NCBI GenBank assembly: GCA_002155895.1
Contig: MUMD01000017.1
Coordinates: 1-32,072, forward strand
Direction of reading: 5' to 3'
Source: Streptomyces rochei
GTDB lineage: Bacteria; Actinomycetota; Actinomycetes; Streptomycetales; Streptomycetaceae
DNA length: 32,072 bases
The notes under the pieces: generated by a model
What the model saw: only the letters and a program-made list of their open reading frames with translations
The model's database searches: none
Told to the model about the DNA's origin: nothing
Shown: positions 10,509 through 30,905 of the stretch, one piece after another
Layout of the letters: each line of letters begins with the position of its first letter
Numbering within the stretch: the first letter of the stretch is position 1
Position numbers and translations under genes: made by a program

Positions 10509-10521
10509 GGCGCCCGCGGGC

Positions 10522-11394: not shown

Positions 11395-11415
11395 TGCATG
11401 CTCCCCCATGGGAGG

Positions 11416-11421: not shown

Positions 11422-11428
11422 CGCAAGC

Positions 11429-11957: not shown

Positions 11958-11977
11958 CGGGTCTGCCCACGGTGATC

Positions 11978-12013: not shown

Positions 12014-12037
12014 TCGTCCTTCTCGTCGCGTGCCGCC

Positions 12038-13381: not shown

Positions 13382-13493
13382 GGGTGCTCCAGAGGTGTAC
13401 GGCAGGTGCGCGCCCGAGCATATCCGGGACGCGGGAGAACCCCGTCGAGCGGCTGTCGTCAAGCTCACCTATCCACGAACGCGGACGACGCTC

Positions 13494-13499
13494 TAAAAT
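13494..13499 (+). promoter_or_regulatory. Candidate -10 box upstream of the acyl-CoA dehydrogenase gene
   Basis: TAAAAT in an unusually A/T-rich patch (13492-13520) of the divergent region is the best -10 candidate. The patch continues into TTACTTAACGGTAGTTAGC, which contains TAAC and GTTA arms 4 nt apart and could bind a regulator. Confidence 0.35.
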
Positions 13500-13560
13500 T
13501 TGGGTTACTTAACGGTAGTTAGCGTGCCCAGCATCACAGCGTTTTGGAGCGTGAGAGACC

Positions 13561-14718: not shown

Positions 14719-14752
14719 CCGGCACGCGCGCGCCCGAGGCGTCCGGGAGGGC

Positions 14753-15319: not shown

Positions 15320-15438
15320 GGCCTCCACCTTATGCCGGGACGACAGGCGCGTGATTTGTGTCAGCTTCGCAACAGCGCCGCCCCTATTTTCCGACGACCC
15401 TTGTATGGCGCTCAGGGCGGACCTGCACACTGGTGCGC

Positions 15439-16716
15439 ATGAATGATTGGCCCGAGGGATGGTCCGGTGACAACCGCGGCGGCGGGTACGGACGCGGCAG
15501 CGCGAGCGCGCGGCCGGAGAGCGCCCGTGTGATGCGTCAGGTCCGTCGCGGCGCTCCGCCGCCGTCCGGCCCGGGCCCGTCGGCCCCGCCGCACGGCGCC
15601 GGTGTGCCGCAGCAGCCGTCGTACGTCGACGGCCAGGGCCACGGCGGCTACGACAGCGGCTACAACACCGGCCAGGTCTACGGCAGCCCCGGCGGCCGCG
15701 GCCCCGCCGGTCCGGGCCCGCGCCAGGGGCGGCCCGCGCCCGACTGGCGGCGACGGATCAAGTGGACCGCGATCACCGTGGTGACCGCGCTGGTCGTGAC
15801 CACCGTCGGCACCTACTTCTGGGCCGACTCCAAGCTCAACCGCGAGGTCGACCTCTCCAAGGTCATCGAGCGGCCCGGGGCCGGCGAGGGCACCAACTAC
15901 CTGATCGTCGGCTCCGACAGCCGCGAGGGCATGACCGACGAGCAGAAGAAGGACCTGCACACCGGCTCCGCCGAGGGCAAGCGCACCGACTCGATGATGA
16001 TCCTGCACACCGGGGACAACGGGGCGACGCTGATCTCCCTGCCCCGCGACTCGGACGTCGAGATCCCGAGCTTCGTCGGCTCCGAGTCCGGCAAGAAGTA
16101 CGAGGGCACCGGCCGGCACGTGAAGCTGAACGCCGCGTACGCGGAGGACGGCCCCGAGCTGCTGGTGCGCACCGTCGAGCACAACACCGGGCTGCGCCTG
16201 GACCACTACGTCGAGATCGGCTTCGCCGGCTTCGCGAACATCGTGGACGCGGTCGGCGGCGTCGAGATGGACATCCCGCAGGACATCAAGGACCCGAAGT
16301 CCGGCGCCGACTTCAAGAAGGGCAAGCAGACCCTGAACGGCGAGGACGCCCTCGCCTTCGTCCGCACCCGGTACGCGCTGGCCGGCTCCGACCTGGACCG
16401 CACCAAGAACCAGCAGAAGTTTTTGTCCGCGCTGGCCAATCAGGTGGCCACCCCGTCCACGGTCCTGAACCCGTTCAAGCTGTACCCGACCATGGGCGCC
16501 GGGCTCGACTCCCTCGTCGTCGACAAGGACATGGGGCTGTTCGACCTGGCGAGCATGTTCTGGGCGATGAAGAGCGTCAGCGGCGGCGACGGCACCTCGA
16601 TGAACATGCCGATCTCGGGCAGCGTCGGCGGCAACCTGAAGTGGGACGACGCCAAGGTGAAGAAGCTGGTCGAGCAGTTGAAGAACGACGAGAAGGTCAC
16701 CGTGACGGGCAACTGA
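15439..16716 (+). CDS. LCP-family glycopolymer transferase 1 (no LytR_C)
   Basis: A 425-aa LytR-CpsA-Psr protein. These membrane enzymes transfer lipid-linked glycopolymers onto peptidoglycan outside the cell. A long Gly/Pro/Tyr-rich cytoplasmic tail (1-102) precedes one membrane segment (about 108-128) and the LCP domain (about 152-335). Core motifs are close to the family standard: GSDSR (158-162), KRTDSMM (181-187), LPRDSD (201-206), KLNAAYAEDGP, DHYVEIGFAGF, LNGEDALAFVRTRY and the DLDRTKNQQKF helix. It therefore looks catalytically competent. There is no C-terminal LytR_C domain. It starts at the ATG at 15439 with no ribosome-binding site, so it may be leaderless. It is the only plus-strand LCP gene and meets LCP2 tail to tail. 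Confidence 0.95.
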   Translation: MNDWPEGWSGDNRGGGYGRGSASARPESARVMRQVRRGAPPPSGPGPSAPPHGAGVPQQPSYVDGQGHGGYDSGYNTGQVYGSPGGRGPAGPGPRQGRPAPDWRRRIKWTAITVVTALVVTTVGTYFWADSKLNREVDLSKVIERPGAGEGTNYLIVGSDSREGMTDEQKKDLHTGSAEGKRTDSMMILHTGDNGATLISLPRDSDVEIPSFVGSESGKKYEGTGRHVKLNAAYAEDGPELLVRTVEHNTGLRLDHYVEIGFAGFANIVDAVGGVEMDIPQDIKDPKSGADFKKGKQTLNGEDALAFVRTRYALAGSDLDRTKNQQKFLSALANQVATPSTVLNPFKLYPTMGAGLDSLVVDKDMGLFDLASMFWAMKSVSGGDGTSMNMPISGSVGGNLKWDDAKVKKLVEQLKNDEKVTVTGN

Positions 16717-16725
16717 GCCCGTCAC
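16702..16725. terminator. Shared hairpin spanning the stop codon of LCP1
   Basis: GTGACGGGC (16702-16710) and GCCCGTCAC (16717-16725) form a perfect 9-bp stem with a 6-nt loop, AACTGA, that contains the LCP1 stop codon. Only 12 bp separate the stops of convergent LCP1 and LCP2, so this hairpin probably ends both transcripts. Confidence 0.6.
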
Positions 16726-16728
16726 CGG

Positions 16729-18231
16729 TCACTGCTTGCCGCAGACCACCTCGTCGCCCCGCACCACCGTGCCCGACTCCTGCGGCGGGTCCGCCGGCCT
16801 CACCCGCGCGACCTTCTCGAAGCCGGCGCCCGCGATCACCTTCAGCGTCGGGCCCTGGCCCTTGACCGGGCGCAGCTCGCTGCCGGGCAGCGCGGCGGCC
16901 AGCGACTTCGCCGAGCGGTCCCAGCGGGGGTCGAAGGCGACCACGGTCCGCTCGACCGCGCGGTCGGTGGCGTTCCTGGGCACCTTGGTGGTGCGGAAGC
17001 CGGTCGCGGCCAGCGCGTCGTCCACCCGCTTGCCGAGACCCGGCGTGCGCGTGCCGTTCTCCACCTGGACCCGGATCTGCTTCGGGTCCACCGGGACCCG
17101 GACCGGCGCCGGGCCCTTCGGCTTCGGCCTGGGCCGGGCCAGCGGCTCGTCCTCGCGCAGGGCGTCGAAGATCCGCTCGGACTCGGCGGGGTCCCACTTC
17201 AGGGTCGAGCCGACGCCCTTGACGGCGTAGCCCATCTGTCCGATCGGCACGGTGGTGAACTCGGAGGACGAGGGCGAGAAGTTCCGCATCGCCCGCCCGA
17301 GCGCCAGCATCTCGTCGGTGCCGAACCCCTTGTCGGCCCGTACCGAGCCCAGCACCGCCTGGGTGACGTCCCGGAACTTCAGCGGGTTCAGCAGCAGCCC
17401 CGAGGACGTCGCACGGTCGATCAGGGCGGCCAGGAAGCGCTGCTGGCGCTTCATCCGGCTCAGGTCGGAGGCGCCGTCGAGGTGGCGGGCGCGGACGTAC
17501 TGCAGCGCCTGCCCGCCCATCAGCGTGTGCGTGCCGGCCGGCAGGTCGAGCCCGGTGTGGCTGTCCTTGAGCGGCTCCGCGGTGCAGACCTCTACGCCAC
17601 CGAGGACGTCCACGGTCTTCATGAAGCTGGTGAAGTCGACCTCCAGGTAGTGGTCGATCTTCACCCGGGTCATCTTCTCGACCGTGCGGATGGTCAGCTG
17701 CGGGCCGCCCTCGGCGTAGGCCGCGTTCAGCTTCACCGGGTGCCCCTTGTGCTGCTCGCCGGTGGTGCGGTCGGTGTGGTCGGGCGTCTCGGCGTACGAG
17801 TCGCGCGGCAGGCTGACCACGCTGGCGCGCTCCCGGTCCTCCGAGAGGTGCACGATCATGATCGTGTCGGTGCAGTGGCAGGGTGCGCCGCCCAGCCGGT
17901 ACTTCCGGCGCTCCTCCTCGCTGATCCGGTCGCGGCCGTCGGTGCCGACCAGCAGCACGTTCATGCCGTCGCCCGCGCGGGGCCGGTTCTTCATGTCCTT
18001 GAAGGCGTCGACCCGCGTGATGTCCGAGCCCAGGCCGGAGAGCACCGCGTGCCCGATCCCGGCGGAGGCGAGCACCACCACCGACAGGGCGGTCACCGCC
18101 CGCACGGCCCAGCGCGGGCGCCTGCGCCGTACGGGGGGCCGGGGCGGACGTCCGGAGGCCCCGCGCTGCGGCGGAGGGACGCCCCGGGACGTGGCGGCCG
18201 GGACCCGGGGGGAGCGGGGCGGCGTGGGCAA
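16729..18231 (-). CDS. LCP-family glycopolymer transferase 2 with LytR_C domain
   Basis: A 500-aa LCP protein. A basic, proline-rich cytoplasmic tail (1-40) is followed by one membrane segment (about 42-62), the LCP domain (about 88-275) and a C-terminal LytR_C domain (about 395-490, RVQVENGTRTPGLG...). Motifs include GTDGR (96-100), TDTIMIVHL, LPRDS (141-145), KLNAAYAEGGP, DHYLEVDF, LQYVRARH and LSRMKRQQRF. The residue before TDT is Cys (C120, with C118), where the family usually has Arg; C216 is also extracellular, so a disulphide is possible. The TTG at 18231 is chosen because GGAGGTG lies 6 nt upstream; a much longer open frame upstream lacks family similarity. It is divergent from the GT2 gene. 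Confidence 0.92.
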   Translation of the reverse strand: MPTPPRSPRVPAATSRGVPPPQRGASGRPPRPPVRRRRPRWAVRAVTALSVVVLASAGIGHAVLSGLGSDITRVDAFKDMKNRPRAGDGMNVLLVGTDGRDRISEEERRKYRLGGAPCHCTDTIMIVHLSEDRERASVVSLPRDSYAETPDHTDRTTGEQHKGHPVKLNAAYAEGGPQLTIRTVEKMTRVKIDHYLEVDFTSFMKTVDVLGGVEVCTAEPLKDSHTGLDLPAGTHTLMGGQALQYVRARHLDGASDLSRMKRQQRFLAALIDRATSSGLLLNPLKFRDVTQAVLGSVRADKGFGTDEMLALGRAMRNFSPSSSEFTTVPIGQMGYAVKGVGSTLKWDPAESERIFDALREDEPLARPRPKPKGPAPVRVPVDPKQIRVQVENGTRTPGLGKRVDDALAATGFRTTKVPRNATDRAVERTVVAFDPRWDRSAKSLAAALPGSELRPVKGQGPTLKVIAGAGFEKVARVRPADPPQESGTVVRGDEVVCGKQ

Positions 18232-18276
18232 GGTGACACCTCCGCGGGGACGGGCCGTGCGGCCGGACGTGCGATC

Positions 18277-18369
18277 CGTGAGCACCGTAGGCCCATACGA
18301 TCTGCGGCCCGGGGCTGTGACCCCCGCGGCGCGCACCCGTGTCCCCCGTTCGCGGTAACGTGAGCACCG
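18277..18369. promoter_or_regulatory. Divergent LCP2/GT2 promoter region with 11-bp direct repeat
   Basis: CGTGAGCACCG occurs at 18277-18287 and again at 18359-18369, directly abutting the GT2 start codon. TAACGT at 18356-18361 is a likely -10 box for GT2 (8 nt from the ATG, no ribosome-binding site). Its context TAACGTGAGC resembles the promoters in front of LCP4 and LCP6. A TACGGT on the minus strand is a possible -10 box for LCP2. Confidence 0.45.
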
Positions 18370-19416
18370 ATGAACGCCAAGTCCGACGTGCGGCTGCCCG
18401 CCGTTTCCGTGATCATGCCCGTCCTCAACGAGGAGCGGCATCTGCGCGGCGCCGTCCGCGCCATCCTCGCCCAGGAGTACGACGGCGAGATGGAGGTGGT
18501 GATCGCCCTCGGTCCCTCGACGGACCGGACGGACGAGATCGCCGCCGAACTCGTCGCCGAGGATGCCCGCGTCCACACCGTGCCGAACCCCACCGGCCGC
18601 ACGCCCGCCGCGCTGAATGCCGCCATCAAGGCGTCCCGGCACCCGGTCGTCGTGCGCGTCGACGGCCACGGCATGCTGTCGCCGAACTACATCGCCACGG
18701 CCGTACGGCTCCTGGAGGAGACCGGCGCGCAGAACGTGGGCGGCATCATGCACGCCGAGGGCGAGAACGCCTGGGAGGACGCCGTCGCCGCCGCGATGAC
18801 GTCGAAGATCGGCGTGGGCAACGCCGCCTTCCACACCGGTGGCCAGGCGGGTCCCGCCGAGACGGTCTACCTCGGTGTCTTCCGGCGCGAGGCGCTGGAG
18901 CGGCAGGGCGGGTACAACGAGGAGTTCATCCGCGCCCAGGACTGGGAGCTGAACTTCCGCATCCGCGAGGCCGGCGGGCTGATCTGGTTCTCGCCCGAGC
19001 TGCGGGTCTCCTACCGGCCCCGGCCGTCCGTGCGGGCGCTGGCCAAGCAGTACAAGGACTACGGCCGTTGGCGGCACGTGGTCGCCCGCTACCACGCCGG
19101 CTCCATCAACCTGCGCTACCTCGCCCCGCCGACCGCCGTGTGCGCGATCGCCGCCGGCGTCGTCGTGGGCGTGGCGCTGACCCCGTGGGGCTTCGTCGTC
19201 CCCGGCGGCTACCTCGCCGCGATCGTCGCCGGGTCCCTGCCGGCCGGCAAGGGCCTCGGGCTCAAGGCGCGGGCGCAGATCCCGGTGGCGCTGGCGACCA
19301 TGCACATGTCCTGGGGCTGGGGCTTTCTGACCAGCCCGCGCTCGCTGGCCAGGCGGGTCATCGCCTCCCGGCGCCCGGCGGTCCAGCCGGACGCCGACGC
19401 CGCCGGCGCCAGGTGA
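18370..19416 (+). CDS. GT2 glycosyltransferase, ExoA-like, membrane-anchored
   Basis: A 348-aa family 2 glycosyltransferase resembling succinoglycan synthesis protein ExoA. The GT-A fold (about 12-240) starts with VSVIMPVLNEERHL, has the nucleotide-sugar/metal segment RVDGHG at about 97-102 in place of a canonical DxD, and the acceptor-side QDWELNFRI near 197. Two hydrophobic stretches at about 255-300 anchor it in the membrane, so it acts on the cytoplasmic face and probably adds a sugar to a lipid-linked glycan. It is the only non-LCP gene inside the seven-gene LCP region and lies 6 bp from convergent LCP3. A role in building the polymer that the LCP proteins attach is an inference. Confidence 0.93.
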   Translation: MNAKSDVRLPAVSVIMPVLNEERHLRGAVRAILAQEYDGEMEVVIALGPSTDRTDEIAAELVAEDARVHTVPNPTGRTPAALNAAIKASRHPVVVRVDGHGMLSPNYIATAVRLLEETGAQNVGGIMHAEGENAWEDAVAAAMTSKIGVGNAAFHTGGQAGPAETVYLGVFRREALERQGGYNEEFIRAQDWELNFRIREAGGLIWFSPELRVSYRPRPSVRALAKQYKDYGRWRHVVARYHAGSINLRYLAPPTAVCAIAAGVVVGVALTPWGFVVPGGYLAAIVAGSLPAGKGLGLKARAQIPVALATMHMSWGWGFLTSPRSLARRVIASRRPAVQPDADAAGAR

Positions 19417-19422
19417 GGTCTG

Positions 19423-21102
19423 TCAGGACCAGGTGAACGCCGGGTTCACGTGCATGCAGGCGCCCTCGTCCGCGCCGTTGAGGGCCTCGGCCGACTCGGG
19501 CGTGGTGTCGTCGGCCTCGGGCGCCCGGTACGCCGTGCCCTCGCGCCAGTCGGCGCCCACGACGACGGTGACGCCCGAGACGTCGGTCGAGCGCCGCACC
19601 GAACTCGCCGGGACGCCCAGGGACTCGGCGACCCGCCGCGCGTCGCCCTCGAGGTCGGCGCTCGGGTAGCGGACGACGGTGCGCTCCTCGCTCGGCAGCA
19701 CCGAGGGGTCGGCGAGGGCCCGGTCGAAGCCCCGCTCCACGAGCAGCCCGGCGACCGTGTCGGCCCGTCCGCGGGCCGCCCCCAGGCTGTCGGTGCGGGT
19801 GCCGTTGCGCACCTGGACCGCGATCTCCCCGTCCGGGGCGGCGGGGTCGGCCGGGGCCTCGGGCTCCTGGGAGGGCTCCTTCTTCTCCGCGTCCTTGCCG
19901 TCCAGCGCGATGTCCTCGCGCACCAGCCGGAACAGCTGCTCCGCGTCCTCGGTCGGCTCCACGCGGGCGCCCACGTACCGGTTGGGCATCGTCGTCATGG
20001 TGATGCGCTCCGGCTTCACCTGGCGCAGCTCATTGCTCAGGTCGTACAGCTTCTTGACGGTGTCCAGGCCCGGGTCGACGGTGAGCGCCCGGGTGGCCTC
20101 CTCGGCGAGCCGGCGCAGCTTGTTCGGGTTGCTCAGCGTGGCGTTCTCGCGCAGCGTGCGCACCAGCGAGTTCAGGTACATGTGCTGGGCCTTGGCCCGC
20201 GCGAGGTCGCTGCCGTCCTCGAAGCCGTAACGGGTGCGCAGCCACTGCAGGGCCTGCTCGCCCTTGACCGGGTGGGTGCCCTTCGCCAACTTGAGGCCCG
20301 AGCCGTGGCCCTGGGCGTCGCGGGAGTGGATGTTGGCGTCCACGCAGACCGGTACCCCGCCGACGGCGTCCGCCATCGACACCACGCCCGCGAAGTCGAC
20401 CATGACGAAGTGGTCGATGTGGATGCCGGTCAGCTCCTGCCAGGTGGCGACCGTGCAGCCGGGGCCGCCGTGGCCGAGGCTCTGATTGGTCATCACCCGG
20501 CCCTCGCTCGCCGGGTAGACCTTCCCGTCGTCCGGGTCGGTGCACTTGGGGATGTGCACCAGGGTGTCGCGGGGCATGCTGACCACCGACATGTTGCTGC
20601 GGTCGGCGGAGAGGTGCACCAGCATCTGCACGTCCGCCAGCGGCGTCGAGCCGAACGTCTCGCGGGCGCCGCCCAGTTGCTGGTTCTCCTCGCTGTCCCG
20701 GGCGTCGGAGCCGATCACCAGGATGTTCAGCGGGGTCTGCCCGGCCGCGTTCGGCGTCGGCGCGGCGACCTTGCTGTCGCCCAGGTTCAGCGGGTCCTTC
20801 TCGATGTTGCTGTTGAGGTGCTCGTAGTAGAGGTAACCGGCGCCCGCCGTACCCACTATGAGCACGGCGAGCGTCAACGCCGTCCAGCGCAGCACCCGGC
20901 GGGCCCGACGGCCCCGGCCCGGGCGGCGTCCGCCGGCCGCGTCGCCGACCCCGCCTCCGCCGCCGTCCGCGTCACCGGCCCCTTCGAGGGCGGTCTCGGC
21001 CCCCTCGGCCCGCTCGGCTCCCTCGGCCGCCTCGGGGCCGTCCGGTGCGCCCTGACGGGCGTCCTCCCCCTGCGTGCTCCCCCGCACACTGCTCCGCGTC
21101 AT
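19423..21102 (-). CDS. LCP-family protein 3 (type A) with LytR_C domain
   Basis: A 559-aa LCP protein, the first A member of the A-B-A-B array; its closest relative here is LCP5. An acidic Glu/Gly/Ala-rich cytoplasmic tail (1-60), a short Arg-rich patch and a membrane segment (about 71-91) lead into the LCP domain (about 124-310). GSDAR (131-135), MPRDT, DHFVMVDFAGV and LQWLRTRYG are conserved. The usual R-S-D-T position reads LADVQM (155-160) and the RQQ helix reads AKAQHMY, so substrate handling may differ. A Glu/Pro linker precedes the LytR_C domain (about 435-525), and a conserved cysteine sits near the C-terminus. The ATG at 21102 has GGGAGGG upstream; a GTG at 21120 is an alternative. 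A perfect 18-bp palindrome at 21122-21139 lies just upstream in the 77-bp gap to LCP4. Confidence 0.92.
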   Translation of the reverse strand: MTRSSVRGSTQGEDARQGAPDGPEAAEGAERAEGAETALEGAGDADGGGGGVGDAAGGRRPGRGRRARRVLRWTALTLAVLIVGTAGAGYLYYEHLNSNIEKDPLNLGDSKVAAPTPNAAGQTPLNILVIGSDARDSEENQQLGGARETFGSTPLADVQMLVHLSADRSNMSVVSMPRDTLVHIPKCTDPDDGKVYPASEGRVMTNQSLGHGGPGCTVATWQELTGIHIDHFVMVDFAGVVSMADAVGGVPVCVDANIHSRDAQGHGSGLKLAKGTHPVKGEQALQWLRTRYGFEDGSDLARAKAQHMYLNSLVRTLRENATLSNPNKLRRLAEEATRALTVDPGLDTVKKLYDLSNELRQVKPERITMTTMPNRYVGARVEPTEDAEQLFRLVREDIALDGKDAEKKEPSQEPEAPADPAAPDGEIAVQVRNGTRTDSLGAARGRADTVAGLLVERGFDRALADPSVLPSEERTVVRYPSADLEGDARRVAESLGVPASSVRRSTDVSGVTVVVGADWREGTAYRAPEADDTTPESAEALNGADEGACMHVNPAFTWS

Positions 21103-21179
21103 CTCCGCGTCCCTCCCCACCCCCGCGCCGCGGCGCGGGCCCGTCGCCGCCCTGTGAGACGTACGGCGGGCCCGTCAGG

Positions 21180-22844
21180 TCAACTGGCGCACAACTTCTG
21201 GTCGGCCGTCGTCTTGTCCACGTCCGGCGTCTCCACCGACGTGGCGTCGAGCTTGACCCCGGGACCCTTGAAGTCCTTGCCGAGGGTGAGGGTCATGGTG
21301 GGCAGGCCCTGGGCGTTGGTGACGCTCTCGCCGGGTTTCATGGCGGCGCCGGACAGGCCGAGGATCTCGGCGAGGGCGCGGGCCTGGTCGGCCTGGTCGG
21401 GGGCGTACTCCAGGGTGGTCTTGGCCGCCTCGGCCTGCGCGTTGCCCGCGTTCTCGGACTTGGTGACGCCGGCCGTGGTCTGGAGGTAGTTGAGTTCCTG
21501 CTGGGCGCTGCCCGCCGGAGCGCCGCCGTTGAGGATGCGGACGCGGACCTCGGAGGGGTCGGACTTCTCGCCCTCCAGGCGGGCGGCGACGGCGGCGGCC
21601 TCCTTCTTCTTCGCCGCCTTCTCCTTCTTCTCGACCTCGGTGAAGGAGATGTCGTTGCGGATCGTGCTGAAGACCTGCTCGGCGGTGCCCGGCTTGAGGA
21701 CGACCGTCACCGGCTTCGGCTCGGCCGGGTTGTCGATCACCGGCACCGTCATGAAGGTGATGTTCTTCGTCGGCACCTTCTTCAGCTCCAGGGCGATGTC
21801 CTTGAGCGTGCCCACGTTGCCGATGGGCTTGTCCACGGTCAGCGCCTTGGTGGCGGCTTCGGCCAGCTTCACCAGCTTGGTGGGGCTGGTGAGGGTGTCG
21901 CCGGAGGCCATCTTCCGCATCAGCGAGCCCAGGAACTGCTGCTGCACCTTGATGCGGTCCAGGTCGCCCTCGTTGCCGAAGGCGTGCCGGGTGCGGACGA
22001 AGGCGAGGGCCTGCTCGCCCTCGACCTTGGACTCGCCGGCGGGCAGCTTGAGGTGGGACTTCGGGTCGTCCACGGCCTTCTCCACGCAGACGTCGACGCC
22101 GTCGACGGCGGTGGTGAGCGTCTTGACCGCGTTGAAGTCGGCCATCATGAAGTGGTCGGGCTTGATGCCCGTCGCCTCCGCCACCGTGCGCATGGTGCAG
22201 CCCGCGTCCCGGCCGTCCTCGCCGAGGCTCCGGTTGAAGCGGACGTCCTGCTCCCCGGGGACGATCTCCGTCGAGCCGTCCTCCTGCGTGGTCTCGCAGT
22301 CGGGGATGTCGACGATCAGGTCGCGGGGGATGCTGAGCGCGGTGGCGTTGGAGCGGTCCTCGGCGACGTGCAGCAGGATCGTGGTGTCGGCGTGGCCGAC
22401 GCTGCCCTTGTCGCCGTAGCCCTCGTTGCCCGCGCCGGTGCGCTTGTCGGTGCCGATGATGAGGATGTTGAAGGCTTCGTCCTTCTTGAAGCTGCTGCTT
22501 CCGGCGCTGCCGACGTCCGTCGTGGTGACGTTGCCCTCGAGGTGCTTGAGGTACAGGTATCCGCCGACACCGGCCACCAGGACGACGAAGGCCGTGCTTC
22601 CGCCGGCCCACAGCAGGGCCTTCTTCCCCTTCGACTTCTTCGCCGGGCGGCGTCCGCGCCGCCCGGGGGCCGGCTCCTCGGGTGCCGAACGGCGCCTGCG
22701 CTGGGGCGGTACCTCCCGGCCGGGCACGGGCGACTGCGGTGCGGAAGGGGGCAGTCGCAGTTCGTATTCACCGGTGCGCGGGTTCAGTACCCACTGGTCT
22801 GCGGGGTCGACGTCGTCTGCCCGCCCACGTCCTTGCGCGTCCAC
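21180..22844 (-). CDS. LCP-family protein 4 (type B) with LytR_C domain
   Basis: A 554-aa LCP protein, first B member of the array and about two thirds identical by eye to LCP6 across the LCP domain. An unusually conserved cytoplasmic start (1-41, including DPADQWVLNP and TGEYELRL) precedes a basic Lys/Arg stretch, one membrane segment (about 76-98) and the LCP domain (about 124-330). GTDKR (131-135), HADTT (151-155, where Arg is usual before the Asp), IPRDL (172-176) and AFVRTRH are present. The LytR_C domain follows a Glu/Lys-rich linker. The GTG at 22844 is chosen because it is the only start conserved in frame with LCP6; a GTG at 22871 (9 residues longer) with AAGGTG upstream is a real alternative. 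Confidence 0.92.
   Translation of the reverse strand: MDAQGRGRADDVDPADQWVLNPRTGEYELRLPPSAPQSPVPGREVPPQRRRRSAPEEPAPGRRGRRPAKKSKGKKALLWAGGSTAFVVLVAGVGGYLYLKHLEGNVTTTDVGSAGSSSFKKDEAFNILIIGTDKRTGAGNEGYGDKGSVGHADTTILLHVAEDRSNATALSIPRDLIVDIPDCETTQEDGSTEIVPGEQDVRFNRSLGEDGRDAGCTMRTVAEATGIKPDHFMMADFNAVKTLTTAVDGVDVCVEKAVDDPKSHLKLPAGESKVEGEQALAFVRTRHAFGNEGDLDRIKVQQQFLGSLMRKMASGDTLTSPTKLVKLAEAATKALTVDKPIGNVGTLKDIALELKKVPTKNITFMTVPVIDNPAEPKPVTVVLKPGTAEQVFSTIRNDISFTEVEKKEKAAKKKEAAAVAARLEGEKSDPSEVRVRILNGGAPAGSAQQELNYLQTTAGVTKSENAGNAQAEAAKTTLEYAPDQADQARALAEILGLSGAAMKPGESVTNAQGLPTMTLTLGKDFKGPGVKLDATSVETPDVDKTTADQKLCAS
21265..21420. repeat. 156-bp tract identical to 25048-25203 (copy 1)
   Basis: This part of the LytR_C coding region of LCP4 is base-for-base identical to the matching part of LCP6, and a further 20 bp match beyond two mismatches on its left. 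Sequence on either side diverges, including at silent sites, which points to gene conversion or a recently homogenised segment. Confidence 0.9.
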
Positions 22845-22960
22845 GGTCTCCCAATCCTCCGTAGGGGCCACGCGGCACCTTCTGCCTGAAGGCGCACGAT
22901 AAAGGGTCAACATGTGCACGACGCCAGGGCGGACCTCGCGGCGGGGGCACCGGAGCGCTC

Positions 22961-23031
22961 ACACTATCCGCCCGGTTCGGCGTCGAACGACTTCGGTGGC
23001 ACGCCGTGCGCCCCTACAACCGGGCAAATCC
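22961..23031 (-). promoter_or_regulatory. Candidate LCP4 promoter conserved with LCP6
   Basis: On the minus strand a -10-like TAGTGT (22961-22966) is followed by GAGCG and preceded by CGAACCGGGCGGA. About 50 nt further upstream lies GGATTTGCCCGGTTGTA (23015-23031). Both elements recur at nearly the same spacing in front of LCP6. The leader to the chosen LCP4 start would be about 110 nt. Confidence 0.5.
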
Positions 23032-23050
23032 CTCCTATTTTCCCGAGTTC

Positions 23051-24733
23051 CTACCATCGGTAGGGCTTGTACACGTCCATGCACGTGCCGGAGTCCGACC
23101 CGTTGAGGGCGTCGCTGCCCTCCGGCAGGTCCCCGGCCTCGGGTTTGCTCTGCTCCGGGTACGACGTTCCCGAGCGCCAGTCCGCTCCCACCACCAGCGT
23201 GATCCCGGACACGTCCGCGGACTTGCGCACCGAACTCGCCGGAATGCCCAGGGCCTCCGCCACCCGCCGGGCGTCCCCCGCCGTCTCCGCGCTCGGGTAG
23301 CGCACCACGGTCCTCTCCTCGGCGACGGCGGCCGAGGTGTCCGTGGCCGCCTTGACGAAGCCCTGGCGCGTCAGAGCCCGGGCGACCTCCGTCGCGCGGC
23401 CGCCGACCGGTCCGAGGGTCGCGGAGCGGGTGGCGTTGCGGACCAGGACGCCGATCTCGGCGTCGGGGGCGGCCCGGTCCTGCCGCCCCTCCCGCGCGGC
23501 GGCCGAGCCCTCAGCGCCGCCACCTTCGGAACCGCTGCCCTTTCCGGTGTCCTCGCCGCCCCTGTCGCCCTTGCCACCCTTGCCGCCCTTGTCGTCGTAG
23601 GACACGTCGTCGCGGAGCATCGCCCACATCCGCTCCGCGTCCTCACCGGCCGGGAGCAGGTGGTTCCCGTCCTGGGGGTCCTCGACGGTGGGCATCGTCG
23701 TCATGGTGATGCGGTCCGTCGGCACCGTCTTCAACTGCATGCCCAGGTCGTAGAGCTTCTTCACCGTGCCGATCTCCTCGGAGACCGTCAGGGACTCGGT
23801 GGCCGCCTCGGCCAGACCCATCAGCCGGCCGGTGTCGGTGAAGACGTTCTGGCTCTTCAGCGTGCGGATCATCGAGTTCATGTACATGTGCTGCGCCCGC
23901 GCGCGCAGCAGGTCGCTGCCCCAGGCATGCCGGGTGCGCAGCCACTGGAGCGCCTGCTCGCCCTCGACCTTGTGCCGCCCGGCGGTCATCTTCAGCCCGG
24001 AGCCGCCCGGCACGGCGGGCAGCGGGCGGTCCCACACGTTCTGGTTGACGCACACCTCGACGCCGCCGACGGCGTCCGCCATCGACACGACACCGGCGAA
24101 GTCGATGGTCATCCAGTGGTCGATGTAGACGCCGGTCAGCTTCTCCCAGGTGGCCAGGGTGCAGCCGGCGCCGCCCCGGCCCAGCGACTCGTTGATGATC
24201 GCGTTGGTCGCCGGGTACTTCTCACCGGTCTTCGGGTCCGTGCACGCGGGGATGTCCACCCTGGTGTCCCGCGGGATGCTCACCACAGAGGCGCTCTTGC
24301 GGTCCGCGGCCAGGTGGATGAGCATCTGCACGTCGCCCAGCGGCGGGTTGTCGCGGTGGTTCCTGCCGCCGCCCAGGGCCACGTTGGCGTCGGAGGCGCG
24401 ACTGTCGGAGCCGACCAGCAGGATGTTGAGGGGCGTCTGCCCGGCCGCGTTCGGCTCGGGCCTGTCCGCCTTGGAGTCGCCGCTGCTGCGCTCGCCCTTC
24501 TCGATGTTGCCGTTCAGGTGCTCGTAGTAGAGGTATCCGGCGCCGGCCGTGCCGAGTATCAGCACCGCGAGGACCGTCGCCGACCAGCGCAGCGCGCGGT
24601 GCCCGCGTCCGGCGCGCCGCGTGCCGGTCCGGCTGCCGCCGCTCCGCGTGCCGCCCCCGGGGCCCCCGCCGCCCCGGGGGCGCCGGACGGCGTCCGGTCG
24701 CGTCCCCTCCTCGTGCACCCTGCTCTGCGTCAT
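23051..24733 (-). CDS. LCP-family protein 5 (type A) with LytR_C domain
   Basis: A 560-aa LCP protein, second A member of the array and paralogue of LCP3. A Gly/Arg-rich cytoplasmic tail (1-47), a membrane segment (about 48-70, ending AGAGYLYYEHLN as in LCP3) and the LCP domain (about 101-290) carry GSDSR (108-112), LGDVQM (132-137) in place of R-S-D-T, IPRDT, DHWMTIDFAGV and LQWLRTRH. A Gly/Lys/Asp-rich linker (about 390-425) leads to LytR_C, with VRYPSAETAGDARRVAEALG and the closing CMDV motif also seen in LCP3. The ATG at 24733 has GGGAAG upstream. The gap to LCP6 is 226 bp, against 77 bp in the other module, and contains a strong hairpin, so LCP5 may have its own promoter. Confidence 0.92.
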   Translation of the reverse strand: MTQSRVHEEGTRPDAVRRPRGGGGPGGGTRSGGSRTGTRRAGRGHRALRWSATVLAVLILGTAGAGYLYYEHLNGNIEKGERSSGDSKADRPEPNAAGQTPLNILLVGSDSRASDANVALGGGRNHRDNPPLGDVQMLIHLAADRKSASVVSIPRDTRVDIPACTDPKTGEKYPATNAIINESLGRGGAGCTLATWEKLTGVYIDHWMTIDFAGVVSMADAVGGVEVCVNQNVWDRPLPAVPGGSGLKMTAGRHKVEGEQALQWLRTRHAWGSDLLRARAQHMYMNSMIRTLKSQNVFTDTGRLMGLAEAATESLTVSEEIGTVKKLYDLGMQLKTVPTDRITMTTMPTVEDPQDGNHLLPAGEDAERMWAMLRDDVSYDDKGGKGGKGDRGGEDTGKGSGSEGGGAEGSAAAREGRQDRAAPDAEIGVLVRNATRSATLGPVGGRATEVARALTRQGFVKAATDTSAAVAEERTVVRYPSAETAGDARRVAEALGIPASSVRKSADVSGITLVVGADWRSGTSYPEQSKPEAGDLPEGSDALNGSDSGTCMDVYKPYRW

Positions 24734-24852
24734 GTCCCTCTTCCCGCCCTCGGGCCCGCGAACATGCCGTCGCGCGCCACCCGTTCGCACTGTTGGACGT
24801 ACGGGGCCCCTGGTTGGCTGTACGGCGACGCCCGCGGATTGCTCCGGTCACG

Positions 24853-24884
24853 CGGAGCGACGTCCTTCTCGGGAAGGCGCTCCG
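24853..24884 (-). terminator. Hairpin between LCP6 and LCP5
   Basis: CGGAGCG (24853-24859) pairs with CGCTCCG (24878-24884), and CCTTC (24864-24868) pairs with GAAGG (24873-24877) around a 4-nt loop, giving 12 base pairs with one 4-nt bulge. It may end LCP6 transcription or act as an attenuator before LCP5. There is no T run. Confidence 0.5.
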
Positions 24885-24959
24885 GCCCCGGCCGTCCTCC
24901 GCCGCCGCCGCGCCGATGGACCGTTGTCGCCCTGTCAGACGCGATCGGGGCCCGTCAGG

Positions 24960-26708
24960 TCACTTCGCGCACTCCACCTTGTCGGCCGTGGACTTGCGGG
25001 CCTCTTCGGGCGCTTCCGCCGAGGCGGCGTCGAGCTTGACCCCGGCGCCCTTGAAGTCCTTGCCGAGGGTGAGGGTCATGGTGGGCAGGCCCTGGGCGTT
25101 GGTGACGCTCTCGCCGGGTTTCATGGCGGCGCCGGACAGGCCGAGGATCTCGGCGAGGGCGCGGGCCTGGTCGGCCTGGTCGGGGGCGTACTCCAGGGTG
25201 GTCCTGGCGACCTCGGCGTCGGCGTCGCCTGCGTTCTCGGACTTGGTGACGCCGGCCTCGTTCTGCAGGTACAGCAGCTCGCGCTGGGCGCTGCCGTCGG
25301 GGGCGCCGCCGTTGAGGACGCGGACGCGCACCTCGGAGGGGTCGGACTTCTCGCCCTCCAGACGGGCGGCGACGGCGGCCTTCTCCTTCTTCTCCTTCTC
25401 CGACTCCTTCTTCTTGACCTCGGTGAAGGAGACGTCCTCCTTGATCATGTCGAAGACCTGCCGGGCGGGCTCCTCCTGGAGGACGACCGTCGCCTTGACC
25501 TTCTCGGCGGGGTTGTCGCGCACCGGCACCGTGACGAAGGAGAGGTTCTTGGTGTTGAGCTTGCCCAGTTCGAGCCCGAGGTCCTTCAACTTGCCGATGT
25601 CGTCCAGCGTGGAGTCGACAGTCAGGGCCTTGGTCCCCGCCTCCGCCAGCTTCACCATCTTCGAGGGGCTGGTGAGCGTGTCGTTGGACTTGAGCTTGCG
25701 CATGAGCGAGCTGAGGAACTGCTGCTGGATCTCGATGCGGCTCAGGTCGCCGCCGAAGCCGACGGAGTGCCGGGTGCGGACGAAGGCGAGGGCGTCCTCG
25801 CCCTCGATGGTGTGCTTGCCCGCCGGCAGGTTCAGGTGCGAGTCGGGGTCGTTGATGTCCTTGGCGAGGCAGACCTCGACGCCGCCGACCGCCGAGGTCA
25901 GCGTCTTGACCGCGTTGAAGTCGGCCACCATGAAGTTGTCGGGCCTCACCCCGGTCAGTTCGGTGACGGTCCGCATGGTGCAGCTGGGGGTACGGCCGCT
26001 CTGGCCGAGGCTCTGGTTGAAGCGGACGCCGGTGGAGCCGGGGATGACCTTCGTGGAGCCGTCCTCCTGCGTGGTCGGGCAGTCGGGGATGTCGACGATC
26101 AGGTCGCGGGGGATGCTCAGCGCGGTGGCGTTGGAGCGGTCCTTGGAGACGTGCAGCAGGATCGTCGTGTCGGCGTGGCCCGCGCTGCCGTTGTCGCCGT
26201 AGCCCTCGTTGCCGGAGCCGGTGCGCTTGTCGGTGCCGATCAGCAGGATGTTGATCGCCTGGTCCTTCTGGAAGCCGCCGGTGCCCGCGCCGTCGTCCGG
26301 GAGGGACTCGATGTTGTCGTTGAGGTGCTGCAGGTACAGGTAACCGGCCGTACCGGCGGCGAGGACGACGAGCGCCATGGTCCCGCCGGTCCACAGCAGG
26401 ATCTTCTTGCCCTTCGACTTCTTCGCCGGCCGCCGCCGTCCCCGCCGCCCGGGTGGCGGCTCCTCGGGGGCCGTGCGGCGTCTGCGCGGCGGGGGGACCT
26501 CACGCTCCGGTGCGGGGGCGGAGGCGGACGCCGGTGCGCCGCGGCGGCGTGACGCGCGGCCCGTGCCGCCGGCACCGCGCTGACCCGGGACCCGCGACTG
26601 CGGTGCGGAAGGGGCCAGTCGCAGTTCGTATTCGCCGGTTTCCGGATTGAGTACCCACTGGTCTGCGGGGTCGATGTCCTCCACCCGCCCACGGCCTTGC
26701 GCGTCCAC
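24960..26708 (-). CDS. LCP-family protein 6 (type B) with LytR_C domain
   Basis: A 582-aa LCP protein, second B member and paralogue of LCP4. It has the same conserved cytoplasmic start (1-41, DIDPADQWVLNP and TGEYELRL), a longer Ala/Pro/Arg-rich spacer, the shared AKKSKGKK before the membrane segment (about 103-126) and the LCP domain (about 151-360). GTDKR (158-162), GHADTT, IPRDL, AFVRTRH and the FLSSLMRKL helix follow. LytR_C is at the C-terminus. The GTG at 26708 begins the segment conserved with LCP4; GGAGG lies 12 nt upstream, a little far. The homologous upstream GTG used as an alternative in LCP4 is out of frame here because of a one-base difference. The 261-bp gap to LCP7 carries the conserved promoter elements. 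Confidence 0.9.
   Translation of the reverse strand: MDAQGRGRVEDIDPADQWVLNPETGEYELRLAPSAPQSRVPGQRGAGGTGRASRRRGAPASASAPAPEREVPPPRRRRTAPEEPPPGRRGRRRPAKKSKGKKILLWTGGTMALVVLAAGTAGYLYLQHLNDNIESLPDDGAGTGGFQKDQAINILLIGTDKRTGSGNEGYGDNGSAGHADTTILLHVSKDRSNATALSIPRDLIVDIPDCPTTQEDGSTKVIPGSTGVRFNQSLGQSGRTPSCTMRTVTELTGVRPDNFMVADFNAVKTLTSAVGGVEVCLAKDINDPDSHLNLPAGKHTIEGEDALAFVRTRHSVGFGGDLSRIEIQQQFLSSLMRKLKSNDTLTSPSKMVKLAEAGTKALTVDSTLDDIGKLKDLGLELGKLNTKNLSFVTVPVRDNPAEKVKATVVLQEEPARQVFDMIKEDVSFTEVKKKESEKEKKEKAAVAARLEGEKSDPSEVRVRVLNGGAPDGSAQRELLYLQNEAGVTKSENAGDADAEVARTTLEYAPDQADQARALAEILGLSGAAMKPGESVTNAQGLPTMTLTLGKDFKGAGVKLDAASAEAPEEARKSTADKVECAK
25048..25203. repeat. 156-bp tract identical to 21265-21420 (copy 2)
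   Basis: Second copy of the perfectly identical segment, inside the LytR_C coding region of LCP6. The offset to copy 1 is 3783 bp, about the length of one A-B module. Confidence 0.9.
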
Positions 26709-26823
26709 GGTCGTCCGAATCCTCCGTCGGGGCCACGCGGCGCCCTCCCCTCGAGGCGCCAGGTCTGGCTCACTGAGTGCGCGGCCCGGGCGGAGCCCGG
26801 TGGCCGGGCACACCGGCCCGCTC

Positions 26824-26895
26824 ACATTAGCCGCACCGTTCCTCACCGGGCGACGTCCGGTGACACATTCCACGAACCTTACAACTGGGCAATCC
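26824..26895 (-). promoter_or_regulatory. Candidate LCP6 promoter conserved with LCP4
   Basis: On the minus strand TAATGT (26824-26829) is followed by GAGCG and preceded by GGAACGGTGCGGC, matching the LCP4 promoter closely. About 51 nt upstream, GGATTGCCCAGTTGTA (26880-26895) matches the LCP4 upstream element. Conservation outside coding sequence after the duplication suggests regulatory use. Confidence 0.5.
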
Positions 26896-26969
26896 GGCGC
26901 ATTTATTGGACAACTGTCCGCACTTCCCCGCCCGTTCCGTGTGCGGTCCGGCCCGTTTTGGAATGCGCT

Positions 26970-28160
26970 TTACTCGCAGATGTCCTCGGCCGCGGTGTTG
27001 CCGCTGAACGTCGGTTCGGGGGAATCACCGCTTCCGGTGGGCTTTCCCGCATCGTCCGGCGCCTGCGAGCCGGTTCCCGCCGCGACCGCGACGGGCTCGT
27101 CCGTCCGCAGGCGGGTGAACAACTTCTCCGCGTCCGGCTCCACGAGTTGGTCACGATTGGCGTCTCCCGCGTACGACTCCCGCGGCACGGTCAGGAATTG
27201 CACGCGTTCGGTGGGAATGTCGCGCAGCCCTCGTACGAGGTCGTACAAACCGCGCAGACTCGCCAGATCCGGGTCCGTCGTGAGAGAAGACGTGGCCGCG
27301 TCCAGAACGGGATACAGCTTCACCGGATTCAGCAGTACGTCATTGCTCTGCACCTTGTTGACGAGAGCCCCGAGAAAGTGCTGCTGCCGTTCCATTCGGT
27401 CGGTGTCGCTGCCGTCACCGAGCGATTTGCGGGCCCGGACGTAGCCGAGGGCCTGCTCCCCGTCGAGCGTCACCCGGCCCGCGGGCAGTTCCAGCCGGGC
27501 GGCCTCGTCGTTCACCGGCTCGCGCAGGCACACCTCGACGCCGTCGAGCGCGTCGACCATCTTCTCGAAACCCTGGAAGTCGACGACCACGTGGTGGTCG
27601 ACGCGGATGCCGGTCAGCTTCTCGACCGTACGGACCGAGCACGCGGAACCGCCCACCTCGTAGGCGTAGTTGAACTGGGCGAACACGGGCTGCGAGCGCT
27701 GCCCGTCCGGGCGCCGGCAGCCGGGCACGTCCACCATCAGGTCGCGGGGGAGGGAGACGGCGGTGGCGCTGTCGCGGCCCGCGGACAGGTGCAGCAGGAT
27801 CGTGGTGTCCGACCGCTCGGTCCCGTCGTCGCGCCCGTAACGGGCGTTGGCGTCGCCGGAGCGGGTGTCCGACCCGATCACCAGGACGTTCTGCGCGCCG
27901 CGGACCAGTGCGGTGGGCCGCTCCTTCTCGTACCGGGCGAGTTCGGCCGCCGCCGCCTCGTCGGCGGTGATGTTCCCGTTCAGCTTGGTGTAGACCGCCC
28001 ACCCGGCCCCCACCGCGGCGACGGCCAGCGCCGCGGCGCCCACCCCGGTCCAGCCGAGCCGCCGCCTGCGGCGCCGCCGCCGCAGCCCGTCCCCGCTCGC
28101 GGACGCCCCCGCCCCGGGCTCGTGGCGCCCGGGGGGCGTGCCCGCGTCGTCGTCGCTCAC
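26970..28160 (-). CDS. LCP-family glycopolymer transferase 7 (no LytR_C)
   Basis: A 396-aa LCP protein. A short acidic tail and a run of eight arginines (27-34) precede the membrane segment (about 36-58) and the LCP domain (about 88-275). Motifs are canonical: GSDTR (96-100), RSDTT (116-120), LPRDL (137-141), DHHVVVDFQGF, LGYVRARK and DRMERQQHF, so it should be active. There is no LytR_C domain; the C-terminal 40 residues are Gly/Ser/Pro-rich and end near a single cysteine (ICE). The GTG at 28160 has GGAGGGAG upstream. An in-frame ATG at 28199 lacks a ribosome-binding site. It heads the minus-strand LCP series; the 310-bp upstream gap contains a palindrome and a tandem repeat array. Confidence 0.93.
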   Translation of the reverse strand: MSDDDAGTPPGRHEPGAGASASGDGLRRRRRRRRLGWTGVGAAALAVAAVGAGWAVYTKLNGNITADEAAAAELARYEKERPTALVRGAQNVLVIGSDTRSGDANARYGRDDGTERSDTTILLHLSAGRDSATAVSLPRDLMVDVPGCRRPDGQRSQPVFAQFNYAYEVGGSACSVRTVEKLTGIRVDHHVVVDFQGFEKMVDALDGVEVCLREPVNDEAARLELPAGRVTLDGEQALGYVRARKSLGDGSDTDRMERQQHFLGALVNKVQSNDVLLNPVKLYPVLDAATSSLTTDPDLASLRGLYDLVRGLRDIPTERVQFLTVPRESYAGDANRDQLVEPDAEKLFTRLRTDEPVAVAAGTGSQAPDDAGKPTGSGDSPEPTFSGNTAAEDICE

Positions 28161-28231
28161 GTCTCCCTCCGTCCCGCACACGTGCGCTCCTACGATCATG
28201 GACCGAAGGGGCGGCGGGAGCGGACCGCAAC

Positions 28232-28470: not shown

Positions 28471-29235
28471 TCACAACGCCGTGGCGGAAACCCGCTCCGT
28501 CTCGATCCGCTGGTCCAGCACCCCGTCCCCGGCCCGCTCCAGATGCCGGCACAGCACCACCGAACCCCCGCTCGCCAAGGGCCCGTACAACCCGGCGCTC
28601 AATCCCTCCCACGTGTCGTACGGCAGCCCGGACAGGATGCGGGCCCCCGGACCCGTGAGCCCCAGCCCCTGCGCCTCCGCCCGAGCCCGTTCCACGACCT
28701 CCGCGCCGCTGAACTCCCGTCCCGCCACGATCAGCGCGGGTCCCTCCGGGTCCACCGGCACGTACGGCACGAAACGGTCGCCCTGCCCCGGCACCTCCAC
28801 GGCGTAGTCGGCGAAGCCCTCCGGCGCGGACGGCACGAACCGCCCGCCGAGCGGCCGCAGCGCCAGCGCGATCCGAGGCCCCGAGCACGCCCGTGCCGCC
28901 TCCAACGACTCCGGGTCCGGACCGCTCACCACCACGTCCGCCGCCGCCGGATCGCCGGCCACGTCGGCGACGACGCCGACCGACGCGCACGCCAGCAGCC
29001 ACACCGCCGTCTGCCAGTGCGCGGGCAGCAGCAGCGCGACCCGGTCGCCGGGTTCGACGGACAGTTCGTCCTGGAGCAGATTCGCGGTCTTGGCCACCCA
29101 ATTGGCGAAGGTGGCCACGGAGAGTTCGACGCGTTCGCCGGTGGCGTCGTCGTAGAAGGTCACCAGGGGGCGTCCCGGGTCCGCGGCGAGCGCGGAACTC
29201 AGCAGGTCGGCAGGGGTGCGATCGGTCGCGTTCAT
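28471..29235 (-). CDS. TIGR03089-family protein (acyl-CoA synthetase N-domain-like)
   Basis: A 254-aa protein matching the actinobacterial TIGR03089 group, which resembles the N-terminal part of AMP-forming acyl-CoA synthetases. TPADLLSSALAADPGRPLVTFYDD, FANWVAKTANLLQDEL and PGDRVALLLPAHWQTAVWLLAC correspond to the early synthetase strands. The family's AMP-binding P-loop and C-terminal lid domain are absent. This short length is normal for the group, so it is not a truncation, but it cannot be a complete adenylating enzyme. Function is unknown. The ATG at 29235 has no ribosome-binding site and fits a leaderless start. It is divergent from the amidase gene. Confidence 0.82.
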   Translation of the reverse strand: MNATDRTPADLLSSALAADPGRPLVTFYDDATGERVELSVATFANWVAKTANLLQDELSVEPGDRVALLLPAHWQTAVWLLACASVGVVADVAGDPAAADVVVSGPDPESLEAARACSGPRIALALRPLGGRFVPSAPEGFADYAVEVPGQGDRFVPYVPVDPEGPALIVAGREFSGAEVVERARAEAQGLGLTGPGARILSGLPYDTWEGLSAGLYGPLASGGSVVLCRHLERAGDGVLDQRIETERVSATAL

Positions 29236-29242
29236 CCGCGCA

Positions 29243-29248
29243 AGGGTA
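29243..29248 (-). promoter_or_regulatory. Probable -10 box of a leaderless TIGR03089 transcript
   Basis: TACCCT on the minus strand ends 7 nt before the ATG at 29235, with no Shine-Dalgarno sequence, the same layout seen at three other genes of the window. Confidence 0.5.
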
Positions 29249-29356
29249 CGCGGGCGACCCCGTCGGCACCGAGCGTACGGCGTACGGCACCGCCACCGGA
29301 TCGGAGGAAAACTCCCGACGAACCGTCAGTTCACCATTGGACAGATTTGTCCGGTG

Positions 29357-30802: not shown

Positions 30803-30849
30803 GGGCGGCACACCGCACGACCACCGAGGGCGCCGGGGAACGGTCTGCA

Positions 30850-30881
30850 TACACTGGCCGGCCGAAAGACAGTTCGGCCGG
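30850..30881 (+). promoter_or_regulatory. Candidate manC promoter with hairpin at the start site
   Basis: TACACT (30850-30855) is a good -10 box. Immediately after it, CCGGCCGAA (30858-30866) and TTCGGCCGG (30873-30881) form a perfect 9-bp stem with a 6-nt loop. This dyad overlaps the expected transcription start, fitting an operator or a 5'-end hairpin. It could instead be the terminator of the amidase gene 55 nt upstream. Confidence 0.5.
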
Positions 30882-30905
30882 TCCCGGCAGGAAGCAGAGA
30901 CGACG

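What the first reader, a model, noticed from the sequence alone, without database searches (positions are those of the whole stretch)
15439..28160. Seven LCP-family genes in 12.7 kb
LCP proteins are usually encoded singly or in small groups. Here seven sit together with only a GT2 gene between them. Three domain layouts are present: LCP only (1 and 7), LCP plus LytR_C (2), and the A and B types with LytR_C. This suggests a specialised set for several wall glycopolymers or for different growth stages (vegetative, aerial, spore).
Basis: partly seen in the sequence, partly recalled or inferred. Interest (0 to 1): 0.7.

Follow-up and report, generated by a model that had tools for sequence, protein, structure and literature searches.

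The report
Streptomyces cluster of seven wall-polymer ligases
A soil bacterium carries seven related genes side by side for enzymes that fasten sugar polymers to its cell wall; such a cluster is already known from Streptomyces coelicolor, but here two of its members are doubled and one pair keeps copying one part from each other.

Summary
In detail: seven LCP (PF03816) genes lie in 12.7 kb with one GT2 gene among them, seven of ten PF03816 matches in this Streptomyces genome. The locus is not new. A 2021 review states that S. coelicolor has 11 LCP proteins, seven of them clustered as SCO3042-SCO3048. A complete genome holding the exact published sco3044 promoter shows a seven-gene locus. S. 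venezuelae has five, including the ligase CglA. Five is the usual Streptomyces state (41 of 47 scorable sampled loci); here an "A" gene (CglA by position) and a "B" gene are both doubled. Single-copy genomes carry either type of A with either type of B, which argues against a fixed polymer or stage for each copy. Two findings I saw reported nowhere in my searches: (1) within a genome the two A genes often share a near-identical LytR_C domain while the rest of the catalytic LCP domain stays 60-77% alike, as recurrent gene conversion would give; (2) a sigmaE-type promoter follows the A gene, mostly before B. LytR_C is reported to mediate LCP protein contacts, so a shared docking domain is my best guess.

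The parts
15439..16716 (+). LCP1: LCP domain only (position of vnz_13715; inferred SCO3048)
   Evidence: PF03816 E 5e-45
16729..18309 (-). LCP2: LCP + LytR_C (position of vnz_13705); an LCP2-like gene lies near GT2 in other families of the class; start codon uncertain
   Evidence: PF03816 E 4e-47, PF13399 E 2e-13
18370..19416 (+). GT2 glycosyltransferase (position of vnz_13700), divergent from LCP2
   Evidence: PF00535 E 1e-21; match of 80% identity or more in 59 of 61 Streptomyces genomes, one of them cut by a contig end; no orthologue in four genomes incl. the S. coelicolor-type one
19423..21120 (-). B3: LCP + LytR_C, first B copy (inferred SCO3046)
   Evidence: trees
21157..21182 (-). sigmaE-like site before B3: TGACC begins at the A4 stop codon, CGTCT downstream
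   Evidence: sequence printed, placed by the repeat coordinates; site class counted
21180..22919 (-). A4: LCP + LytR_C, first A copy (CglA type by gene order; inferred SCO3045)
21265..21420 (-). 156-nt stretch in the A4 LytR_C region identical to A6 (proposed gene-conversion tract)
   Evidence: offset 1499 from 22919; four-fold identity
23051..24790 (-). B5: LCP + LytR_C, second B copy (inferred SCO3044)
24936..24963 (-). match to the published sigmaE promoter of sco3044; its -35 overlaps the A6 stop codon
   Evidence: 3 mismatches in 28, none found in 100 shuffles
24960..26873 (-). A6: LCP + LytR_C, second A copy (CglA type by gene order; inferred SCO3043); start codon uncertain
   Evidence: model of residues 150-637, mean pLDDT 80
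25048..25203 (-). partner of the identical 156-nt stretch, in the A6 LytR_C region
   Evidence: offset 1670 from 26873
26970..28199 (-). LCP7: LCP domain only (position of vnz_13685; inferred SCO3042)
   Evidence: PF03816 E 1e-48; TagT match
28471..29235 (-). TIGR03089 family flanking gene
   Evidence: E 5e-82
29216..30802 (+). N-acetylmuramoyl-L-alanine amidase (Amidase_2), flanking wall gene
   Evidence: PF01510 E 7e-18
30711..31988 (+). mannose-1-phosphate guanylyltransferase, flanking gene
   Evidence: NF052502 551 bits
12038..13468 (-). UDP-glucose/GDP-mannose dehydrogenase, often kept near GT2 across the class
   Evidence: PF03721 E 5e-59; match of 57% identity or more in 12 of 20 class-level loci, 15 of 20 with weak matches of 27-29% counted

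Best explanation
This is the Streptomyces wall-glycopolymer ligase locus known as SCO3042-SCO3048 in S. coelicolor and vnz_13685-13715 (with cglA) in S. venezuelae, in its seven-gene form. SHOWN HERE: seven LCP proteins with the catalytic residues in place; five recurring classes; A and B doubled; LytR_C domains of A4 and A6 more alike than their LCP domains in the pattern of gene conversion; a sigmaE-type site between each A and the following B in the window. INFERRED from the family: each protein sits in the membrane by one helix, its LCP domain moves a lipid-pyrophosphate-linked glycopolymer onto peptidoglycan, and its LytR_C domain docks to other LCP/LytR_C proteins. INFERRED (my proposal): A4 and A6 are two CglA-type ligases that dock through one common, conversion-homogenised LytR_C interface and largely cover for each other, so seven-gene species should be buffered against loss of one A. 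The B partners can be raised on wall damage through sigmaE.
For: Domains. TagT D82, R84, D97, R118, D119, R217, R219, D224, R227 and Q231 present in all 127 LCP1, 133 LCP2 and 160 A rows, 174-175 of 175 B rows and 116-120 of 120 LCP7 rows. Gene order as published for vnz_13685-13715, where the gene 13710 is not described. Complete genome G246, with the exact sco3044 promoter, has 11 PF03816 matches, seven in one block LCP1-LCP2-B3-A4-B5-A6-LCP7, as the review says of S. coelicolor. Conversion: four-fold sites of A4 vs A6 in the same genome are more alike in LytR_C than in LCP in 24 of 25 distinct loci (means 0.88, 0.64); B pairs 12 of 33. Averaged over 25 loci, within-locus paralogues exceed between-locus orthologues by 0.11-0.20 over the five LytR_C blocks (0.78-0.91 vs 0.65-0.76); outside, in blocks with 100 sites or more, the largest excess is 0.06. 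Complete or two-contig genomes show 164-, 164- and 231-bp identical stretches. SigmaE-like site at 53 of 144 A-to-B junctions, against 0 of 113 LCP7-to-A, 0 of 23 B-to-A and 0 of 12 B-to-B. LytR_C domains bind each other in mycobacteria (passages of PMC11832169). The A6 model matches LCP structures, and an Rv2700-type structure, 6q10, weakly (E 0.017, prob 1.00).
Against: No activity, expression or polymer data for this strain. A = CglA rests on gene order; the Vnz sequences were not compared. Buffering by two A genes is a guess: the review reports no severe phenotype for all ten other LCP proteins, single-copy classes included, so redundancy may be wider than the A pair. LytR_C docking is reported in mycobacteria, not Streptomyces, and full-length LCP proteins gave no signal in that assay. 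LytR_C identity of the A pair varies between loci (four-fold 58-100%), and one locus of 25 goes the other way. Some assemblies are short-read and can blur similar repeats. At 91 of 144 A-to-B junctions the sigmaE pattern was not found, 3 of 5 A-to-A junctions have it, and a looser pattern also hit 9 of 116 LCP7-to-A junctions against 54 of 148 A-to-B. The sigmaE paper names sco3044 but not sco3046.
Confidence: 0.6

Rival explanations
1. The seven genes are a division of labour: each LCP protein serves one wall glycopolymer or one growth stage.
For: Five classes recur across the genus with class-typical residues next to the catalytic Asp. SigmaE-type sites lie mostly before B genes. The LCP domains of A4/A6 and B3/B5 stay diverged.
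Against: One-A/one-B genomes carry any A/B type combination. PdtA, the ligase assigned to PDP, lies outside the cluster. CglA loss affects several stages at once.
Confidence: 0.25
2. The extra A and B are neutral or dosage duplicates created and lost by unequal crossing-over, with LytR_C conversion a by-product of repeat recombination and no functional meaning.
For: Copy number and type change often: 18 (B) and 17 (A) parsimony changes on the locus tree of 107 loci, 8 single/double switches; forms BBA, BAA, BABA and BBABA all occur. Fragments of A or B occur in some loci.
Against: A4 and A6 LCP types stay separate in trees and the full-length copies keep the catalytic residues; the excess identity falls on LytR_C and spares the tail and most of the LCP domain; B pairs show no such excess.
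Confidence: 0.3
3. Some members glycosylate proteins rather than peptidoglycan, as A. oris LcpA does (review passages).
For: Best PDB fold match of A6 is A. oris LCP enzyme 5v8c.
Against: Peptidoglycan ligases match almost as well, and cglA loss lowers wall glycopolymer.
Confidence: 0.07

Closest known systems
S. coelicolor SCO3042-SCO3048 (review PMC7831098, section 57 and passages read; Sigle et al. 2016 not held, known only through the review)
   Same: Seven clustered LCP genes; G246, which holds the exact sco3044 promoter, has the same order of LCP genes
   Different: The G246 locus lacks the GT2 gene present in the window
S. venezuelae cglA locus vnz_13685-13715 (PMC11481543; abstract and sections 5, 9, 10 read)
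   Same: Order LCP-only, LCP-LytR_C (cglA), LCP-LytR_C, glycosyltransferase, LCP-LytR_C, LCP-only; amidase and nucleotidyltransferase on the same flank
   Different: Five LCP genes; the window has a second A and a second B
TagT/TagU/TagV of B. subtilis and Cps2A of S. pneumoniae
   Same: LCP fold of the A6 model and catalytic residues
   Different: About 20% identity to A6; that they lack LytR_C is recalled, not tested
LytR_C proteins of mycobacteria (VirR Rv0431, Cei Rv2700)
   Same: A6 model matches 6q10 (E 0.017) and, poorly, 2m5y (E 0.44)
   Different: Those are LytR_C-only; here LytR_C is fused to LCP

Membership tests
LCP glycopolymer transferase family | PF03816 domain above the curated cut-off | tested here: met
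   all seven, 141-166 bits vs cut-off 24.6
LCP glycopolymer transferase family | Conserved catalytic Asp/Arg residues (TagT D82, D97, R118, R219, R227 and others) | tested here: met
   present in all seven window proteins; at the place of TagT Arg95 LCP2 has C, A has H, B has L in the window
LCP glycopolymer transferase family | LCP fold | tested here: met
   predicted model of A6 only: 33 PDB matches at E<=0.001, led by named LCP enzymes; several are titled only as uncharacterised proteins or transcriptional regulators. Other six not modelled
LCP glycopolymer transferase family | One membrane helix with the LCP domain outside | tested here: inconclusive
   helix 14-38 of the A6 model, residues 1-25 under pLDDT 50; topology not predicted
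LCP glycopolymer transferase family | Phosphotransferase activity on lipid-linked glycopolymer | not testable with these tools
   needs purified protein or mutants
SCO3042-3048 / cglA locus | Same gene order and related members | tested here: met
   L173, L174, L175 and the loci; flanking genes named for the vnz locus match
SCO3042-3048 / cglA locus | A is the orthologue of CglA by sequence | not tested
   S. venezuelae sequence not identified among the loci; assigned by gene order only
sigmaE regulon (sco3044 promoter) | Published promoter sequence upstream of the B gene | tested here: met
   3 mismatches before B5; similar site before B3; activity not tested

The most novel reading that the evidence does not exclude
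[quoted passage not shown] The A-B pair would then be a swappable cassette whose B member is raised by sigmaE on wall damage.
Probability: 0.25. Interest if true: 0.6.

Novelty: new member of a known kind. Interest (0 to 1): 0.38.

Why it matters
It offers a simple, testable reason why loss of one LCP gene is severe in S. venezuelae (one A gene) but was reported as mild in S. coelicolor (two A genes, by inference). It also points to LytR_C, a domain of unsettled function, as the shared part of paired ligases.

Tried and rejected
Rejected: seven LCP genes as a surprise in itself (five is the norm, seven is in print). Rejected: one operon; the genes lie on both strands, and no sigma70-type promoter was found (streptomycete promoters are poorly covered by that scan). 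Rfam and tRNA scans of the window were empty. AlphaFold2 of LytR_C alone had pLDDT 48.6 and was not used further; a PDB sequence search with it found nothing. The alignment column for TagT Arg95 was misplaced by gaps and was replaced by counting two residues before Asp97. B pairs were tested for LytR_C conversion and showed none; the small difference goes the other way (0.60 vs 0.65, p 0.04).

Literature: searches listed no paper on LytR_C gene conversion or A/B shuffling; two searches listed only 15 of 39 and 15 of 336, and the library holds open-licence papers only, so this is weak evidence of absence.

Dropped rows: the 30 short loci L001-L030 were left out from then on; the trees left out loci without LCP7 or GT2, that loci without LCP7; the locus tree kept 107 loci with exactly one each of LCP1, LCP2, GT2 and LCP7. 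Identical loci L114, L140 and L158 were dropped but not. L108 lacked LytR_C data. One search used about a third of the between-locus pairs. For class-level loci I fetched 20 of 63 hits, chosen to span identities, not at random.

Full report
Observation. The window (C79 of an unnamed Streptomyces genome in 808 contigs) carries seven LCP genes at 15439-28199 with a GT2 gene at 18370-19416. The genome has ten PF03816 matches, one partial, seven of them here. Genes 1 and 7 have an LCP domain only; LCP2, B3, A4, B5 and A6 also have LytR_C. A4/A6 are 66-70% and B3/B5 about 55% identical; other pairs 28-40%.

What is already known. Review PMC7831098 (section 57 and passages) says S. [quoted passage not shown] PMC11481543 (abstract, sections 5, 9, 10) describes the S. 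venezuelae locus with five LCP genes and a glycosyltransferase, and shows that CglA is needed for normal wall glycopolymer content, cell width and septum placement. PMC6767563 (passages) shows sco3044 is a sigmaE target. PMC6593405 (passages) lists SCO3044 and SCO3046 as glycoproteins found by mass spectrometry, so both are expressed there.

Link to S. coelicolor. The published sco3044 promoter matches the window at 24936-24963 (-) with 3 mismatches in 28, none in 100 shuffles. Searched in 392 Streptomyces genomes with up to one mismatch it occurs in two; the exact hit is in G246, a single-contig 8.6-Mb genome. G246 has 11 PF03816 matches, seven in one block in the order LCP1, LCP2, B3, A4, B5, A6, LCP7. 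I infer that G246 is S. coelicolor or its species and that SCO3042 to SCO3048 are LCP7, A6, B5, A4, B3, LCP2, LCP1. G246 and G118 have no GT2 at this place, and no match at E<=1e-12 elsewhere.

Distribution. I fetched 60 loci from evenly drawn Streptomyces genomes (58 placed by GT2, 2 by LCP matches) and 80 loci nearest to the window's GT2 (biased to kin). In the first set, window excluded, 47 loci show both LCP1 and LCP7: 41 with five LCP genes, 2 with six (one of them by a second LCP7-like gene), 2 with seven, 1 with eight, 1 with four; 13 were cut or atypical. In the second, 63 show both: 30 five, 15 six, 18 seven; 17 cut or atypical. At least three loci occur in both sets.

Deeper history. 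A GT2 match of 80% identity or more is present in 59 of 61 Streptomyces genomes. In the family 60 of 61 genomes, 10 of them Streptomyces, have one at E<=1e-140, and in the class 71 of 118, 8 of them Streptomyces, at E<=1e-60. Of the 63 class-level hits outside the genus I fetched 20: a gene most like LCP2 (33-42% identity) lies near GT2 in 13 of 20, one or two LCP genes in 16 of 20, none in 4. The UDP-sugar dehydrogenase is there at 57% identity or more in 12 (15 with weak matches), and PurK in 8. So LCP2-GT2 looks like the old core, and B, A and LCP7 like additions in the family; this is inference from best matches, not from a tree of the class.

A and B as exchangeable units. A tree of A, B and LCP7 rooted on LCP7 separates B into B3 and B5 types (support 0.78 and 0.99) and A into A4, A6 and a basal group (A6 0.98; A4 0.36, or 0.92 without L069). 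Among 107 loci, the single-B/single-A states B3A4, B3A6, B5A4 and B5A6 occur 10, 12, 14 and 9 times, B3 or B5 with basal A 19 and 5 times, all four genes together 21 times plus one BBABA locus, and other mixed states 16 times. On a tree of the other four genes the B state changes 18 times and the A state 17 times; shuffled labels need about 50 and 60. So duplication, loss or exchange has been frequent but states still follow the tree. The direction of the changes is not settled.

Domain-limited gene conversion. In the window, four-fold-site identity of A4 vs A6 in 50-codon steps is 52-86% over most of the N-terminal and LCP parts, 92% at the first catalytic motif, 90-93% near the end of the LCP part and linker (15-20 sites), 76-79% at the start of LytR_C and 93-97% in its centre. 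Of 25 distinct loci with two A genes, 24 have higher LytR_C than LCP four-fold identity (means 0.88, 0.64; Wilcoxon p 1e-7, loci not independent); in 12 the first A copy is nearer in LytR_C to its own paralogue than to the first copy of any other locus, against 1 for LCP. B pairs: 12 of 33, means 0.60 and 0.65. Averaged over 25 loci, paralogues exceed orthologues by 0.11-0.20 at positions 526-650 (counted from the start of the stop-to-stop A6 frame), by at most 0.06 in other blocks with 100 sites or more, and fall below them in the last 19 residues. In single- or two-contig genomes the longest identical stretch is 164 bp (G246, G118) and 231 bp (G443); in the window 156 bp. Constraint on the DNA sequence alone does not explain this, since orthologues are less alike there than paralogues.

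Regulation. A sigmaE-like pattern near the stop codon of the upstream gene occurs at 53 of 144 A-to-B junctions (23 of 69 B3, 26 of 63 B5, 4 of 12 unassigned), 0 of 113 LCP7-to-A, 0 of 23 B-to-A, 0 of 12 B-to-B, 0 of 1 LCP7-to-B and 3 of 5 A-to-A; about 0.6 of 144 expected after shuffling bases. A looser pattern gave 54 of 148 A-to-B but also 9 of 116 LCP7-to-A. In the window the -35 overlaps the A stop codon before both B genes. Function is shown only for sco3044, in print.

Catalysis. All seven keep TagT D82, R84, D97, R118, D119, R217, R219, D224, R227 and Q231 (numbering anchored on R118; roles of Asp82, R118 and R219 as in the review). The residue two before D97 is R in 127 of 127 LCP1 and 118 of 118 LCP7 rows, C in 133 of 133 LCP2, H in 159 of 160 A, and L in 155 and R in 19 of 174 B. 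CglA, of the A position, works in vivo, so His there is probably compatible with function.

Mechanism. Read with the family's known chemistry, the cluster encodes membrane ligases that fasten lipid-linked polymers to peptidoglycan. A CglA lacking LytR_C behaves like the deletion in the disA suppression test (section 5), and LytR_C lets LCP-family proteins contact each other in mycobacteria. A homogenised LytR_C on two diverged A ligases therefore fits a shared docking face. This last step is inference.

Noticed in passing
L173 2676-6131; L174; G246, G118, G002, G010: The GT2 gene, near universal in the genus, is missing in the S. coelicolor-type genome and three others (G002 has only a 28% relative); in L173 and L174 LCP2 and B3 then abut.
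   Followed up: partly
window 15439-16716 and loci: LCP1 changes strand between species.
   Followed up: no
window 4976-15430: PurK, two M19 dipeptidases, UDP-sugar dehydrogenase, acyl-CoA dehydrogenase and thioesterase; several stay near GT2 outside the family. From recall only, this resembles the neighbourhood of the mycobacterial cpsA1 gene.
   Followed up: partly
window 2105-4196: Response regulator and histidine kinase with a DraK N-terminal domain.
   Followed up: no
L138, L141, L154, L166: A and/or B genes found on the other side of LCP1, so part of the module has moved.
   Followed up: no
A alignment, positions 251-300 of the A6 frame: A second, weaker rise of paralogue identity over the first catalytic motif.
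   Followed up: partly
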